Part shown: piece by piece, positions 995 through 23,734 of the stretch
How positions within the stretch are numbered: position 1 is the first letter of the stretch
How the letters are laid out: every line of letters begins with the position of its first letter
Assembly (NCBI GenBank): GCA_003022125.1
Contig: PXQH01000064.1
Coordinates: 1-64,000, forward strand
Source of the DNA: Cyanobacteria bacterium QS_8_64_29
Lineage (GTDB): Bacteria > Cyanobacteriota > Cyanobacteriia > Cyanobacteriales > Rubidibacteraceae
Direction of reading: 5' to 3'
Length of the DNA stretch: 64,000 nt
Translations under genes and position numbers: made by a program
Notes under the pieces: model-generated
The model's input: the letters and a program-made list of their open reading frames with translations, nothing else
Databases searched by the model: none
What the model was told of the DNA's origin: nothing

Positions 995-2047
995 ATGACA
1001 GCCTCGCCGTCTACCGCAACCGCCGATTGGCCCGCGCTGCTGCAGCAGTTGCTGGCGCGCCAGTCGCTGTCCCAGGCGCAAGCCGCCCAGCTCATGAGCG
1101 GGTGGTTGCAGGATGCTATTCCGCCGTCGCTCTCAGGTGCCATCCTGGCAGCCTTGGAACTCAAGGGGATCTCGGCAGCAGAACTGGCAGGCATGGCGCA
1201 AGTGCTGCAGGCCCAATCCGCTGGCGGCAGCCGCGAGCTGGCCACCCCTCTAATCGATACCTGCGGTACCGGCGGCGATGGGGCGGCCACCTTCAACATC
1301 TCCACGGCCGTGGCCTTTGTCGCGGCTGCTGCCGGTGCCCGCGTGGCCAAGCACGGCAACCGCTCGGCCTCAAGCCGCGTTGGCTCGGCTGACGTGCTAG
1401 AGCAGCTGGGCATCGATTTGGCTGCCTCCGCCGAGCGCAGCCAGGCGGCCCTGGAGGAAGTGGGCATTGCCTTTGCGTTTGCCCCCCACTGGCACCCCGC
1501 CCTCAAGCAGGTCGCGCCGCTGCGGCGCACGCTGGGGGTGCGGACAGCGTTCAACCTGCTCGGGCCGCTGGTCAACCCGTGGTGCCCCAGCGGTCAGGTT
1601 GTGGGCGTCGCCGATTCGCAGCTGGTTGAAACTGTGGCGCAGGCCCTGCAGCAGTTGGGCGCCGATCGCGCCATCGCCCTGCACGGGCGCGAAGGGCTGG
1701 ATGAAGCCGGGCTGGCCGCCGGCAGCGATCTGGCCGTTGCCAGCGGCGGGCGCGTTTGGCAGGCCCAGCTCGAGCCGCAGCAGCTGGGGCTCGCGCCCGC
1801 CCCCACCGCGGCCCTGCGCGGCGGCGACCTGGCCGAGAACGCCCGGATTTTGCGCCAGGTCCTGCAGGGGCACGGGACGCAGGCCCAGCAGGATGCCGTC
1901 GCGCTCAATGCCGCCCTAGCCCTGCAGGTTGCCAGCATCGTCCCGCTTGAGGCCCACCAGGCCGGGCTAGACTGCGCCCGCGAGGTGCTCCAGAGCGGGG
2001 CAGGTTGGGCCAAGCTGGAGGCCCTGGCGCAGTTCTTGGGCCGCTGA
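995..2047 (+). CDS. trpD: anthranilate phosphoribosyltransferase
   Basis: It transfers the phosphoribosyl group of PRPP to anthranilate, the second step of tryptophan synthesis, in the cytosol. The 350 residues match the usual family length. The N-terminal helical domain is followed by the PRPP/Mg loop DTCGTGGDG (around residue 87), the anthranilate-site segment KHGNRSASS, and [15 protein letters not shown]. The ATG at 995 gives the expected short N-terminus. It lies 38 bp after msrP and 50 bp before carA on the same strand. No other trp gene is in the window, as is usual in cyanobacteria, where trp genes are dispersed. Confidence 0.95.
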
Positions 2048-2097
2048 GATCGGCGGGCTGCTAGATTGGAGAGCGGTTCGATGCTGGCGTACCGCCC

Positions 2098-3288
2098 ATG
2101 TCGCTTTCTGCCCTAGAGGCCCCACCTGCCCTGCTGGTCCTGGCCGATGGCAGCACGTATTGGGGGCGCTCGTTCGGCGCACCCGGCACGATCGTGGGCG
2201 AGGTGGTTTTTAATACGGGCATGACCGGCTATCAGGAGGTGCTTACCGACCCCAGCTACCGCGGCCAAATCGTCACCTTTACCTATCCTGAGCTGGGCAA
2301 CACCGGCGTCACCCCCGAAGATGACGAGTCGGCCGGGCCCCAAGCGCGCGGCGCGATCGCGCGCAACGTCTGCTACGCCCCCAGCAGCTGGCGCGCCCGC
2401 GATACCCTTCCTAACTACCTGCAGCAGCACGGCATTCCGGGGATCTACGGGGTCGATACGCGCGCGATCGTCCGCCGGATCCGATCGTTGGGGGCCATGA
2501 ACGGCGGCATCTCCACCGAGATCCGCGACCCCGAGCACTTGCTGCAGCAGGTGCGGCAAGCCCCCGATATGGCGGGGCTCAACTTGGTTTGGGAGGTCAC
2601 GACGCCCCATATCTACGAGTGGTCCGATCCCAGCGATCCGGTCTGGGAGTTCCGCCCGGCCGCAGGGGGCAGCGATAGCGAGCCGCTGACGGTCGTAGCG
2701 CTCGATCTGGGCCTCAAGCGCAACCAACTGCGTCGCCTGGCCAGCTACGGCTGCCGCATCATTGTCGTGCCGGCCGATACCCCAGCCCAGACCATCCGCA
2801 GCTACCAACCGGATGGCCTGTTCCTCAGCAACGGCCCCGGCGATCCGGCAACCGTCACCGAGACCATCGAAACCGCTCGCGAGCTCTATCAAGGTGGTTG
2901 CCCCACCTTTGGCATCTGCATGGGACATCAGCTTTTGGGATTGTCGTTGGGGGGCAAGAGTTTCAAACTCAAATTCGGCCACCGCGGCCTCAACCAGCCC
3001 GCCGGGCGGCCGCAGCAGGTCGAGATCACCAGCCAGAACCACGGCTTTGCCATCGCGGCTGACTCGCTGCAGGGGCGCGATGACATCGAGATTACCCACC
3101 GCAATCTCAACGACCGCACGGTGGCAGGCCTGCGCCACAAATCCCTGCCGGTGTTCTCGGTGCAGTACCACCCGGAGGCCAGCCCCGGCCCCCACGATGC
3201 CGACTACCTGTTCGAGCGCTTTGTCGCCCTGATGCGATTGCAGCGCGCCCGATCAGGCCCGCAAGCGGAAGCCCAGCTCGGTACCTGA
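2098..3288 (+). CDS. carA: carbamoyl-phosphate synthase small (glutaminase) subunit
   Basis: CarA hydrolyses glutamine and channels ammonia to CarB to make carbamoyl phosphate for arginine and pyrimidines. The N-terminal CPSase small-chain domain ([30 protein letters not shown]) is followed by a class I glutamine amidotransferase domain. The nucleophile elbow is [10 protein letters not shown], and the His/Glu pair is in [12 protein letters not shown]. The length of 396 is near 380-390 in most bacteria. carB is not in the window; unlinked carA and carB is common in cyanobacteria. Confidence 0.96.
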
Positions 3289-3348
3289 GGTGCGCTAGCA
3301 TAGAGCCTTGACTCAAAATCGCCATCAACTGCTTGGAGGGAGGCCACC

Positions 3349-3714
3349 ATTCCTGAGCCGCTTGCTTTAACGGTCAGCCTGCGCGGGACCCGAGAGGCCC
3401 GCGAGAACTGCCAGATCTTCCGGTTGACCGGGCTAATGGATGCGTTCTCCGAGTCGGCGCTGCGCACCACAATCGGCAACTATTTCGAGCAAGGCCCTCC
3501 CAACCTGATTTTGGACCTCTCGCAGATCGACTTTATCGATAGCTCCGGCATCGGCGCCCTGGTGCAGCTGGTCAAAAAAGTCCAGAACGTGGGCGGTACC
3601 CTGCAGATCGTGACCAACGCCCGCGTGACGCAAACGGTGAAGCTCGTCCGCTTGGAAAACTTCCTATCGCTGCGCTCATCGCTGGATGAAGCGCTCGAGC
3701 AGGTGGGGGCGTAG
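3349..3714 (+). CDS. STAS-domain anti-sigma factor antagonist, probable ATT start
   Basis: This single STAS domain belongs to the SpoIIAA/RsbV class, which usually binds anti-sigma factor kinases and is switched by Ser phosphorylation. The core is LILDLSQIDFIDSSGIGALVQLVKK, where DSSG holds the usual phosphoserine. The conserved N-terminal strand of the cyanobacterial family (…VSLRGTREARENCQIFRLTG) is present in frame upstream of the first TTG at 3424. The only sensible start for the whole protein is an ATT at 3349, placed 5-6 nt behind a strong GGAGGGAGG ribosome site at about 3335-3343. That gives 121 residues. If ATT is not used, translation would start at 3424 and lose the first beta strand. 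No partner kinase or phosphatase is adjacent. Confidence 0.8.
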   Translation: MPEPLALTVSLRGTREARENCQIFRLTGLMDAFSESALRTTIGNYFEQGPPNLILDLSQIDFIDSSGIGALVQLVKKVQNVGGTLQIVTNARVTQTVKLVRLENFLSLRSSLDEALEQVGA

Positions 3715-3732
3715 CATTGGGGGCAAGCGCAG

Positions 3733-4194
3733 GTGAGCGACCGAGCGCCCGATGCCGACGCCGATCTGGGGCACGCTGCCGCGCGCTTGCGCGTTCTGGG
3801 GGCAGCGCCGCAGGCGCTATCGCAGCTCGAGCGGGCCTCACCAGCGGCCCTAGCCTACTTGGGGGATGCCGTTTACGAAACCCACGTTCGCGCCCGTCAC
3901 CTACTACCGCCCAAGCGCCTCGAAACCTACCATCAGCACGTAGTGGCCGAGGTGCGGGCCGAGCACCAGGCGCGCCAACTGGACTGGCTGGAGCCGCACC
4001 TCACCGAGGCCGAGCGCACCCTGGTGCAGCGCGGCCGCAATGCCAGCTCGGGCCGGCCCCGACGGCTGTCGCGCCGCGTTTACCAGCGCGCGACTGGGCT
4101 GGAGGCGCTGATGGGCTATTTGTTCCTGCAAGACCCGCAACGCTTGAGCCAGCTGCTAGCGTTGCTAGAGCGCGATCGCGGTGAGTCGCAGTAA
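3733..4194 (+). CDS. mrnC: Mini-ribonuclease 3
   Basis: Mini-III is the catalytic domain of RNase III without the double-strand RNA-binding domain. In Bacillus it matures 23S rRNA ends. The 153-residue protein has the signature AYLGDAVYE with the acidic catalytic residues, followed by [12 protein letters not shown] and the GRNA motif near residue 98. The GTG at 3733 is 18 bp after the STAS gene. It is followed 11 bp later by a 23S rRNA methyltransferase gene, a pairing common in cyanobacteria and Firmicutes that supports a role in rRNA maturation. Confidence 0.9.
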
Positions 4195-4205
4195 CTGTAG
4201 CCATC

Positions 4206-5111
4206 ATGAGCGAGCGATCGACACCAGCGCCCCGCAAGCGCAAATCTGCCCGAGAGCGCCCCAACCGCAAGGGAGCGCCTCCCAGCAACCGGGCCAAGCC
4301 CAAGCGCAGTGCCGAGCCGGAGCCGGATGGCGCCGCCGAGGAGCTCGTCTACGGCCGCCGTACCGTGCTGGCGACCTTGGAGAGCGAGCGGCCTCTCAAT
4401 CGCATCTGGATCGCCCCGCGCTTGCGCTACAGCGCGCCGTTCCACGCGCTGCTCGATCGGGCCAAGGGCCGCGGGGCAGCCATTGAGGAGGTGCCGCCGC
4501 ACCGCTTGGATCGCATCGTCAAAGGCGGCAACCACCAGGGGGTCGCGGCGCAGGTCTCGCCCTATGCCTACTGCGATTTGGCGGTCTTGACCGAGCAGGC
4601 GCTGGCCCGACGTGATCGCGCCACGCTGGTGGTCTGCGACGGCATTACCGATCCCCACAACTTGGGCGCGATTGCCCGCTCGGCAGAGGCCTTCGGCGCA
4701 GCAGGGTTGGTCTTGCCCAAGCGGCGCGCCAGCGCCATTACGGCAACGGCCATGAAAGTCGCAGCCGGGGCGCTCGAGCGCATTAGCGTGGCGCGGGTGG
4801 CTAACATTGCCCGCACGCTGGACCAGCTCAAAGCGAGCGGGTTTTGGATTTACGGAACGGCTGAGGGCGGCCGCCATTCGCTGGAGCAAGCCGAGTTCGA
4901 CCGCCCCATCGCACTGGCGATCGGCTCTGAGGCCCAGGGCCTGAGCTTGCTGGTGCAGCGCCGCTGCGACGTGCTGGTCTCGGTTCCGCTGATCGGGCAG
5001 ACCGCCAGCCTCAATGCCTCGGCAGCCGCCGCAGTGGCCCTATACGAGATCGAGCGCCAGCGCCGCGCCCGCCGTCCCATCATCGATGCCGCCGGAGGCA
5101 GCTCGGCATGA
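4206..5111 (+). CDS. rlmB: TrmH/RlmB-family 23S rRNA 2'-O-ribose methyltransferase
   Basis: A SPOUT methyltransferase that should methylate a ribose in 23S rRNA (G2251 for RlmB). After about 50 basic, disordered residues ([13 protein letters not shown]…) comes the substrate-binding domain ([14 protein letters not shown]). The catalytic domain follows, with motif 1 [17 protein letters not shown], motif 2 AIGSEAQGL and motif 3 [14 protein letters not shown] forming the SAM-binding trefoil knot. The basic extension is typical of cyanobacterial members. The stop overlaps the next start by 4 bp. Family certain; the exact target nucleotide is inferred. Confidence 0.9.
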
Positions 5112-5377
5112 GCACCAGCGCTAGGGCCAGCTCCCTGCAAGAAGCCCTAATCGATGGATTGCAAGCGCTCGGTTGCGCTGCCTGGGTCGCCATTGTCACC
5201 GAGCGCCCGAACTGCACCTACTACTTCGGGCCGTTTTTGTGCCGCCGGGCGGCAGCGCGCTGGCAGCCTGGCTACGTTGAAGACCTGGAGGCCGAAGGGG
5301 CCCGCATCGTTAGCGCGACGATCATGCGCTGCCGGCCCCAACAGCTGACGCAACTGCAGGAATCGGCTCCGTCCTAG
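5108..5377 (+). CDS. DUF1816 domain protein
   Basis: A small protein of 89 residues, largely one DUF1816 domain, a family restricted to cyanobacteria. Recognisable residues are the core CTYYFGPF, a following aromatic/Gly segment [11 protein letters not shown] and the terminal RCRPQQLT. The function is not established; some members are linked to phycobilisome linker-like proteins. Its ATG overlaps the rlmB stop (ATGA-type), which implies translational coupling. It sits between two RNA methyltransferase genes. Confidence 0.8.
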
Positions 5378-5381
5378 CGCC

Positions 5382-6143
5382 GTGCCGAGCGAGCTGTCTA
5401 CACCGCGAATCGTGCTGGTTGAGCCCAGCGGTGCGCTCAACCTCGGGGCCATCGCGCGCGCCATGAAAAACATGGCCCTGCGCGAGTTGGTGCTGGTCAA
5501 CCCGCACTGCGATCCGAAAGCTCAAGCGGCCCAACGCATGGCCGTCCATGCCAGCGACATCCTGGCGCAGGCCCGGCAGGCAACCAGCTTGCCCCAAGCG
5601 CTGCAGGGCTGCCAGCGCGCGATCGCCACAACCGCTCGCCCCCGGCAGTTCCACGCGCCGCTGGAGTCGCCGCGCGAGGCGCTGCCGTGGCTTTTGGAGG
5701 CGCCCTCGGCTTTGGTTTTTGGCCCCGAGGAGCGCGGTTTGAGCAATGCCGAGCTCAACTGCGCCCAGCGCTTTGTCGCCATCCCCAGCAACCCCGACTA
5801 TCCCTCGCTCAACCTGGCCGCAGCCGTTACCGTCTGTGCCTACGAGCTCTATCAGGCCCGCCGTTCGCCAGCCCCGGCCGCTCGCGACGCAATCCCGGCG
5901 CCTCAGGGCGAGGCGGCACCGCTAGAGGAACTCGAGGCCTACTACCAACACCTCGAGTCGGTTTTACTGCAGATCGGGCACTTGGCGCCGCACACGGCGC
6001 CAGCGCGCATGCTCAAGCTGCGGCGCCTCTACAACCGAGCGCGTTTGACGCGCGAGGAGCTCGCCTTGCTGCGCGGTACCCTGCGCCAAACCGAATGGGC
6101 CATCTCGCAGCCCCCCTCTGCCGGCAGCGGCCCTAGCAGCTAG
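5382..6143 (+). CDS. TrmJ-like tRNA/rRNA 2'-O-methyltransferase (SPOUT)
   Basis: A second SPOUT enzyme of 253 residues of the TrmJ/YfiF group, which methylates the ribose at position 32 of tRNA. Motifs are VEPSGALNLGAIARAMKNM near the N-terminus, FGPEERGLSNAEL, and PSLNLAAAVTVCAYEL, which form the SAM knot. The C-terminal part (LEELEAYYQHLESVL … LRRLYNRARLTREELALLRG) is the helical extension that TrmJ uses for dimerisation and tRNA contact. The start is GTG at 5382, 4 bp after the DUF1816 gene. It is a different branch of the superfamily from the neighbouring RlmB, so I do not treat it as a duplicate. Confidence 0.88.
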   Translation: MPSELSTPRIVLVEPSGALNLGAIARAMKNMALRELVLVNPHCDPKAQAAQRMAVHASDILAQARQATSLPQALQGCQRAIATTARPRQFHAPLESPREALPWLLEAPSALVFGPEERGLSNAELNCAQRFVAIPSNPDYPSLNLAAAVTVCAYELYQARRSPAPAARDAIPAPQGEAAPLEELEAYYQHLESVLLQIGHLAPHTAPARMLKLRRLYNRARLTREELALLRGTLRQTEWAISQPPSAGSGPSS

Positions 6144-21965: not shown

Positions 21966-22073
21966 ATGGCCAAGATCGTCAGCCGCCGCCCGCTGGGCCA
22001 GCAGCCGGTCTATGACATCGGCGTTGCCCGGGACCACAACTTCGTCCTGGCCGATGGGTCGGTGGCCTCAAAC
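21966..22073 (+). other. C-terminal split intein fragment (DnaE IntC)
   Basis: Residues 1-36 of the dnaE-C product. They carry the catalytic His of block F (DHNF), the penultimate residue Ser35 in place of the commoner His, and terminal Asn36 for cyclisation. The junction Asn36/Cys37 falls between bases 22073 and 22074. Ser before Asn is typical of the DnaE split inteins. Confidence 0.95.
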
Positions 22074-23303
22074 TGCTTTAACAAGTCCCACTCCACCGCC
22101 TACGCCTACATTACCTACCAGACGGCGTACCTCAAGGCCAATTACCCGGTGGAGTACATGGCCGCGCTGCTATCGGCCAACAGCGACAGTACCGACAAAA
22201 TCGAAAGATACATCGAAACCTGCCAGCGGATGGCGATCGCGGTCGAGCCGCCCGATATCAACCGCTCGCAGGTGAGCTTCACCCCTGTGGGCGATGCCAT
22301 TCTGTTTGGGCTCTCGGCGGTGCGCAACGTGGGTCACAGCGCCATCGAAAATATCCTGGCAGCGCGCGAGCAAGCCGGCGGGGCCTTCCAGTCGCTCGCC
22401 GATCTGTGCGCGCGCGTCGATTTGCAAACAGTCAACCGCCGCGCCCTGGAATCGCTGATCTACTGCGGTGCCCTGGACTGCCTGGGCAGCAACCGCAACC
22501 AGCTCATCTGCAGCCTCGAGCCCATGCTGAAGTGGGCCCAGGGCCGGGCGCGCGCGCGCAATAGCGGGCAGTTTAGCTTATTTGAGGCCGATGCCTCGAG
22601 TTCGGAGACGGATGGCTTCGCCGATGCCCCGGTCCTGGAAAACGTCGCCGATTTCTCGCCGGCGGATAAGCTCAAGCAAGAAAAGGACCTGCTGGGATTC
22701 TACGTCTCCGACCATCCGCTCAAAGCCACCCGCCAGGCCGCTCGGGTGTTTGCCCCCGTCAGCCTGGGCGAGCTGGGGGGCTACGAGGCCAAGCAAGCGG
22801 TCAGCGCGCTCGCCCTAGTGGCCGAAGCCAAGCCCGTCACGACCAAAAAAGGTGATCGCATGGCCTTCGTCACGCTCGAGGATCTCTCCGGGCAGGCCGA
22901 GGGTGTGGTCTTTCCGGATGCCTACGAGCGCATCGGATCGCTGCTGGAGGCGGACGCACGCCTGATCGTTTGGGGCAAAGTCGATTGGCGCAACGAGCAG
23001 CCGCAGCTGCTGGTCGACGATGCCGAGACCGTGGAGCGCGTCCGCATGGTGGTGGTGGATCTCACGCCGCAGCAGGCAGCCGACCGGCAAGCCTTGCGCC
23101 GGTTGCAAGATACCCTACAGTCGCAATCGGGCGAGCGCGCCCCGGCGCGCGTCCCGGTAGTAGGGGCCATTGGCGATGGCAGCCGCCAGCAATTCGTGCG
23201 CTTTGGGCCCCGCTACTGGGTGCCCGACGATGGCGAGGCCGTGGAGCGGCTCAACGCCATGGGCTTTAGCGCGCGGGCGGCTGCCTTGATGGGCCAGCGC
23301 TAG
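21966..23303 (+). CDS. dnaE-C: DNA polymerase III alpha subunit, C-terminal half with split-intein IntC
   Basis: In many cyanobacteria the replicative polymerase alpha subunit is encoded by two unlinked genes and joined by protein trans-splicing. The first 36 residues are the C-terminal intein piece: block F VYDIGVARDHNFVLADG and block G VASN ending in the catalytic Asn36. The +1 extein residue is Cys37 followed by FN, as in Npu and Ssp DnaE. The extein (37-445) continues with KSHSTAYAYITYQTAYLKANYP, the helix-hairpin-helix region and the OB-fold (GDRMAFVTLEDLSG). The N-terminal half must lie elsewhere. The stop shares bases with the convergent ssb stop. Confidence 0.97.
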   Translation: MAKIVSRRPLGQQPVYDIGVARDHNFVLADGSVASNCFNKSHSTAYAYITYQTAYLKANYPVEYMAALLSANSDSTDKIERYIETCQRMAIAVEPPDINRSQVSFTPVGDAILFGLSAVRNVGHSAIENILAAREQAGGAFQSLADLCARVDLQTVNRRALESLIYCGALDCLGSNRNQLICSLEPMLKWAQGRARARNSGQFSLFEADASSSETDGFADAPVLENVADFSPADKLKQEKDLLGFYVSDHPLKATRQAARVFAPVSLGELGGYEAKQAVSALALVAEAKPVTTKKGDRMAFVTLEDLSGQAEGVVFPDAYERIGSLLEADARLIVWGKVDWRNEQPQLLVDDAETVERVRMVVVDLTPQQAADRQALRRLQDTLQSQSGERAPARVPVVGAIGDGSRQQFVRFGPRYWVPDDGEAVERLNAMGFSARAAALMGQR

Positions 23304-23734
23304 AAGGGGATGTCGTCGAGGTTGGCCTCGGACTCGGCAGCGGCACTGGTCTCGGGCACTCGGGCGGCTGTACCGGCCTCGCTCGATCCGGTGGCGCCGG
23401 TTTCGGCCTCGCCCGCTGAGGCACTGGCCAGCGCCGCTAGGGGATGGATGCGGTAGGCAATCAGCTCGGTCCGCTTCTCTTTAAATCCCTCCGGCCGGTC
23501 GATGGCGTTCATTTGCAGGCGCCCCTCAATGATGAGGCGATCGCCAACGGCGCGCTCCTGCTGGATCCGGGTGGCCAAGTTGCCCCAGCCAACGACTTTG
23601 ACCGTGGCCGGGGGATCGTCCTGGCGCAACCCCGGAAACTCCACCAGCATCTCGGCCACCGGGGTCTGGTTGTCCTGGGTGTAGCGCAGCTCCGGTGCGC
23701 TGGCGACCTGCGCCATCAGGATGCAGCTATTCAT
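23300..23734 (-). CDS. ssb: single-stranded DNA-binding protein
   Basis: SSB coats single-stranded DNA and recruits repair and replication enzymes. The 144 residues hold one OB-fold of the cyanobacterial type (MNSCILMAQVASAPELRYTQDNQTPVAEM, VKVVGWGNLA, DRLIIEGRL), a Ser/Ala/Glu linker, and the acidic tip LDDIPF that binds partners. The Ala/Glu/Thr-rich linker is typical. It is convergent with dnaE-C, with overlapping stop codons. Confidence 0.93.
   Translation of the reverse strand: MNSCILMAQVASAPELRYTQDNQTPVAEMLVEFPGLRQDDPPATVKVVGWGNLATRIQQERAVGDRLIIEGRLQMNAIDRPEGFKEKRTELIAYRIHPLAALASASAGEAETGATGSSEAGTAARVPETSAAAESEANLDDIPF

What the first reader, a model, noticed from the sequence alone, without database searches (positions are those of the whole stretch)
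21966..22073. Split DnaE intein (IntC) at the start of dnaE-C
The gene starts with 36 residues of IntC, ends them with Ser35-Asn36 and continues with the C-extein CFN. The polymerase is therefore assembled by trans-splicing with an N-terminal half elsewhere. Sequence differences from the well-studied Npu and Ssp pieces (e.g. SRRPLGQQP, VLADGSVASN) could mean different kinetics, salt tolerance or cross-reactivity.
Basis: partly seen in the sequence, partly recalled or inferred. Interest (0 to 1): 0.6.

Follow-up and report, generated by a model that had tools for sequence, protein, structure and literature searches.

The report
Split DnaE intein, C-terminal half
A cyanobacterium makes its DNA polymerase in two pieces that are predicted to be stitched together by a self-removing split intein; this is ordinary for cyanobacteria, but some relatives carry the same intein with a DNA-cutting gene between the two halves, which points to how such splits arise.

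Summary
Confirmed, and ordinary in kind. Window 21966-22073 (+) encodes a 36-residue DnaE IntC that runs straight into the C-extein (CFN...; ORF to 23303). The only partner in this 99.95%-complete genome is a dnaE-N on another contig, FAEY|CLSYDTE..., with a 123-aa IntN. A single DnaE core hit means no contiguous dnaE was found. The splicing residues are present, and all eight sampled family relatives are split alike. Kinetic or salt differences are unsupported by sequence. Trans-splicing itself is inferred, not shown.

Relatives led to something better. In other cyanobacteria the same intein sits as dnaE-N/IntN - LAGLIDADG endonuclease gene - IntC/dnaE-C, scattered among near-identical intein-free alleles. 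Decayed and one-ORF (cis) versions also exist. The window's dispersed split may be the fixed end state of that element. I found no description of this for dnaE in the open papers held here, but key papers were not held.

The parts
21966..22073 (+). IntC, 36 codons, C-terminal half of the split DnaE intein, ending Ser35-Asn36
   Evidence: translation; intein_Cterm above cut-off; PDB matches to DnaE inteins
22074..23303 (+). C-extein: C-terminal part of DNA polymerase III alpha, starting Cys+1-Phe-Asn, including the stop codon
   Evidence: NF005616 over residues 1-444, above cut-off
21966..23303 (+). dnaE-C, whole gene. Its partner dnaE-N/IntN lies outside the window, on contig C43 of the same genome (reading frame 3170-5983, IntN from 5612)
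   Evidence: partner

Best explanation
This is the C-terminal half of the standard cyanobacterial split DnaE intein. dnaE-N (another contig) makes the N-terminal polymerase part plus IntN (123 aa); dnaE-C (window) makes IntC plus the C-terminal polymerase part. The two intein pieces bind and fold into one HINT domain. Cys1 of IntN forms a thioester, Cys+1 takes over the N-extein, Asn36 of IntC cyclises, and joined DnaE is released. Shown here: both halves, exact junctions, catalytic residues, absence of another DnaE core in the draft genome. Inferred from the family: binding, splicing, and that the spliced product is the replicase.
For: Single IntN partner and single DnaE core in the genome. 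FAEY|C...N|CFN junctions identical to the family's. Cys1, the T-x-x-H motif of IntN (Thr69, His72), Asp17 and His24 of IntC, Asn36 and Cys+1 are all present. Family and PDB matches for both halves. Eight family relatives keep both halves intact, apart in the genome, and the dispersed form is stable on the DnaE tree (24 rows, 4 changes), as expected if splicing is required.
Against: No experiment. The IntN departs from near-invariant columns at Val31, Pro54 and Trp81, so its activity is not assured. The genome is a 69-contig draft, so a missing second dnaE cannot be fully excluded.
Confidence: 0.95

Rival explanations
1. The halves bind but splice poorly; the polymerase works as two pieces held together by the intein halves.
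For: Unusual Val31, Pro54, Trp81 and Pro70 in IntN.
Against: All catalytic residues are kept in both halves. Pro70 occurs in 7 of 36 IntNs. NrdJ-1, an ultrafast intein, has aromatic residues at the equivalent accelerator sites (PMC13123727).
Confidence: 0.04
2. Assembly or binning artefact: a contiguous dnaE is missing from the draft, or one half belongs to another organism.
For: 69 contigs; the halves lie on different contigs.
Against: 99.95% complete and 0.06% contaminated. The nearest relative of both halves is the same genome, G001. All eight family relatives, including single-contig genomes G004 and G006, have the same dispersed split.
Confidence: 0.01
3. History only: the endonuclease found between the halves in relatives is a late insertion into an already split, adjacent locus, not a remnant of the split's origin.
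For: The dispersed split is widespread and stable. The intein tree, 132 columns, does not put endonuclease-bearing copies at the base.
Against: The endonuclease gene sits at the usual endonuclease position of cis inteins (PMC11923092 states that the common split site coincides with it). Spacing is uniform, 750-782 bp, with an 8-nt overlap of endonuclease end and IntC start in 10 of 12 loci checked. Whole element versus empty site is what varies among near-identical alleles. Remnants of the endonuclease locus lie between some adjacent halves.
Confidence: 0.35

Closest known systems
Npu DnaE split intein (Nostoc punctiforme) and Ssp DnaE split intein (Synechocystis PCC 6803)
   Same: Same gene, insertion site, split site, lengths (IntN about 100-123, IntC 36), junctions FAEY|C and N|CFN; 63/97 (Npu) and 54/97 (Ssp) identities in IntN, 23/36 and 19/36 in IntC
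   Different: Pro70 and Trp81 in IntN where Npu has Lys and Met; Ala in place of Glu122 in IntC, which 28 of 91 IntCs share
   Same: Same split, halves far apart in the genome; nearest relative G001, 66% identity over dnaE-C and 81% over dnaE-N
   Different: The window copy is on a longer branch and is lysine-poor (2 against 5-9), in a 65% GC genome
Fractured genes (phage gp41-type split inteins with an endonuclease gene between the halves; Dassa 2009, known by title and recall, paper not held)
   Same: Relatives of the window intein, not the window itself, have IntN - endonuclease gene - IntC
   Different: Host gene is chromosomal dnaE, and the endonuclease is of the LAGLIDADG_3 family. The window has no endonuclease.

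Membership tests
Cyanobacterial split DnaE intein | IntC at the start of a dnaE-C gene, ending Asn before Cys+1-Phe-Asn | tested here: met
Cyanobacterial split DnaE intein | IntN at the end of a separate dnaE-N gene in the same genome | tested here: met
Cyanobacterial split DnaE intein | No contiguous dnaE in the genome | tested here: met
   one PF07733 hit in a 99.95%-complete draft
Cyanobacterial split DnaE intein | Conserved splicing residues (Cys1, TxxH, Asp and His of IntC, Asn, Cys+1) | tested here: met
Cyanobacterial split DnaE intein | Trans-splicing activity | not testable with these tools
   needs an assay
Fractured-gene split intein with free-standing endonuclease | Endonuclease gene between the intein halves | tested here: not met
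   No match to the endonuclease in G000 or its family, and the halves are on different contigs. Met in relatives of other families.

The most novel reading that the evidence does not exclude
The cyanobacterial split DnaE intein, including the window's, descends from a mobile fractured element (dnaE-N/IntN, LAGLIDADG endonuclease gene, IntC/dnaE-C) that still homes between dnaE alleles in other cyanobacteria. Loss of the endonuclease and separation of the halves, which recombination with an intein-free allele cannot easily undo, fixed the split in the window's lineage.
Probability: 0.5. Interest if true: 0.65.

Novelty: new member of a known kind. Interest (0 to 1): 0.35.

Why it matters
The window's pair is one more natural variant of a widely used protein-ligation tool, with a rare Trp81 in IntN. 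More important is what its relatives show: one insertion site in one gene presents empty, cis, fractured-with-endonuclease, decayed, adjacent-split and dispersed-split states, several of them within single genera. That makes the old question of how split inteins arise and become fixed testable by phylogeny and by homing assays.

Tried and rejected
Salt-adaptation signature: window intein charges (IntN -9, IntC +1) are mid-range, and the family does not stand apart from others. The low lysine count (2 against a mean of 7.4) is more simply explained by 65% GC. Window ORFs show no clear acid shift (crude ORF set). A first DnaE tree was discarded because some N-extein stretches appeared to hold other dnaE inteins; it was redone with 42 aa upstream plus 250 aa downstream. 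Papers not held: Caspi 2003, Shah 2012, Stevens 2016, Dassa 2009. Gap alignments of L061 and L065 scored only slightly above shuffles and are not counted as endonuclease remnants; L076, L098 and G270 scored below shuffles. No structure prediction was run: the halves are on separate contigs and solved homologues exist.

Full report
OBSERVATION. The ORF at 21966-23303 (+) reads MAKIVSRRPLGQQPVYDIGVARDHNFVLADGSVASN|CFNKSHSTAY.... The first 36 codons are exactly 21966-22073. NCBIfam places residues 1-444 in NF005616 (DNA polymerase III alpha, above cut-off) and residues 14-37 in intein_Cterm, above cut-off. The closest solved structures by sequence are DnaE inteins.

PARTNER. A search of the window's own genome (G000, 2.22 Mb, 69 contigs, 99.95% complete) with Npu IntN gives one hit, C43:5612-5902. 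PF07733 (DnaE core) also gives one hit, in the same reading frame. That frame reads ...DLFEQMRLFAEY|CLSYDTEVVTLEYG..., with 123 intein residues before the stop. It carries intein_Nterm above cut-off and matches Npu IntN in the PDB at 5.8e-40.

RESIDUES. Against them the window pair has 63/97 (Npu) and 54/97 (Ssp) IntN identities, and 23/36 and 19/36 IntC identities. The accelerator positions 70, 75, 81 and 136 are recalled from Stevens 2016 (not held). PMC13123727 confirms that Npu has Met and Ser accelerators and that the ultrafast NrdJ-1 has aromatic residues at the equivalents. The window has Pro70, Met75, Trp81 and Ser136. Among 36 distinct IntNs, Pro70 occurs 7 times, Met75 33 times, Trp81 once. 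Val31 and Pro54 also depart from near-invariant columns. Among 91 distinct IntCs the penultimate residue is Ser in 80. Pro9 (2%) and Gln12 (4%) are the rarest window residues in IntC. Net charges, IntN -9 and IntC +1, are mid-range, so sequence gives no reason to expect salt adaptation.

RELATIVES. The eight other sampled genomes of the family have dnaE split at the same place with the halves apart. G005 has a contig of the same length (21,437) as the named record of Cyanobacteria bacterium SW_9_44_58, with an identical IntC. From remembered chromosome sizes, G006 and G004 are probably Halothece PCC 7418 and Dactylococcopsis salina PCC 8305, which would put the window in that halophilic group; this is recall, not a test. 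Window GC is 64.9%.

WHERE THE RELATIVES LED. In G009 and G027 the two halves lie side by side with a 259-aa ORF between them. It matches Pfam LAGLIDADG_3 above cut-off and has two LAGLIDADG-type motifs, YLLGLIAADG and YVLGYFDGDG, in most copies. In 293 genomes of the order, 18 hold this protein, in families f2, f9, f17, f20, f31 and f32. In all 12 loci checked first, IntN lies directly upstream. In 10 of them the IntC start overlaps the end of the endonuclease frame by 8 nt; in L163 the frame stops 24 nt earlier, and in L160 my pattern missed the IntC, although one search places dnaE-C at the same spot. Gap lengths are 750-782 bp. Matches also occur in other orders of the class (flanks not checked).

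OTHER STATES. Five genomes (G261, G080, G145, G132, G183) have IntN and IntC in one ORF, natural cis mini-inteins at the same site. G286, G102 and G231 (the latter corresponding to Limnofasciculus baicalensis, L085) have adjacent halves with gaps of 112-175 bp that keep sequence similar to the endonuclease locus above shuffled controls. G265 has the endonuclease interrupted by an insertion, and G251 and G095 have broken frames. Many genomes have contiguous dnaE with no intein at this site.

TREE AND EMPTY SITES. On a DnaE extein tree of 93 rows, the dispersed split (24 rows) needs 4 changes; the endonuclease-bearing form (15 rows) needs 13, at least 10 forced by starred branches. The tree is a quick one, and the sample was chosen to include intein-free members of the same genera, so the shuffle statistics should not be leaned on. 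The direct pairs matter more. In 15 of 16 occupied/empty pairs compared within genera, flank DNA identity is 87-98% around an insert of 1185-1206 bp (fractured) or 399-411 bp (cis), with nothing inserted in the empty allele; the sixteenth, G140/G152, has 83-85%. Between families, endonuclease-bearing loci have 73.9% intein against 61.6% extein identity; dispersed pairs of like divergence have 66.6% against 61.7%. This is the pattern expected of homing, not proof of it.

SYNTHESIS. The window feature is a textbook split DnaE intein. An economical history is that this intein existed, and still exists elsewhere, as a mobile element with its endonuclease as a separate gene between the halves; once the endonuclease was lost and the halves separated, the split became fixed. 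The intein tree is too short to give direction, so I put this history at 0.5. The literature searches showed no account of an endonuclease between dnaE halves (titles, abstracts and selected passages were seen), but the most relevant papers were not held. I make no priority claim.

Noticed in passing
L144, L145, L154-L163, L173-L176 (G009, G027, G138, G166, G282, G179, G209, G149, G219, G136, G157, G212, G251, G110, G140, G095): dnaE-N/IntN - LAGLIDADG-type endonuclease ORF - IntC/dnaE-C on one strand, with close intein-free relatives: a fractured, apparently still mobile form of the split DnaE intein.
   Followed up: partly
L164, L165, L166, L167, L168 (G261, G080, G145, G132, G183): IntN and IntC of the same DnaE intein fused in one reading frame (cis mini-intein, 399-411 bp insert), in genera that also have intein-free dnaE; genus g56 has fractured, cis and empty forms.
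   Followed up: partly
L172 (G265), about 1700-5010: The endonuclease ORF between the dnaE halves is itself interrupted by an insertion of about 2.5 kb. The insertion was not identified.
   Followed up: no
L085 and L170 (G231), L169 (G102), L178 (G286): Short gaps between adjacent dnaE halves that keep decayed endonuclease-locus sequence.
   Followed up: partly
G039:C17 (L147), L167, L168, L206, L208 and others: dnaE frames of 1400-1800 aa suggest further inteins at other dnaE sites, apparently one just upstream of RRAMGKKK.
   Followed up: no
window 23300-23734 (-): A single-stranded-DNA-binding-like protein (named by eye, not by a family search) converges on dnaE-C, overlapping by 4 nt. A homologue also lies near dnaE-C in L005, L016 and L023, in other positions.
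   Followed up: partly
G000:C43 IntN, residue 81 (also 31 and 54): Trp81, Val31 and Pro54 stand in columns that are otherwise Met, Tyr and Glu in at least 33 of 36 DnaE IntNs.
   Followed up: partly
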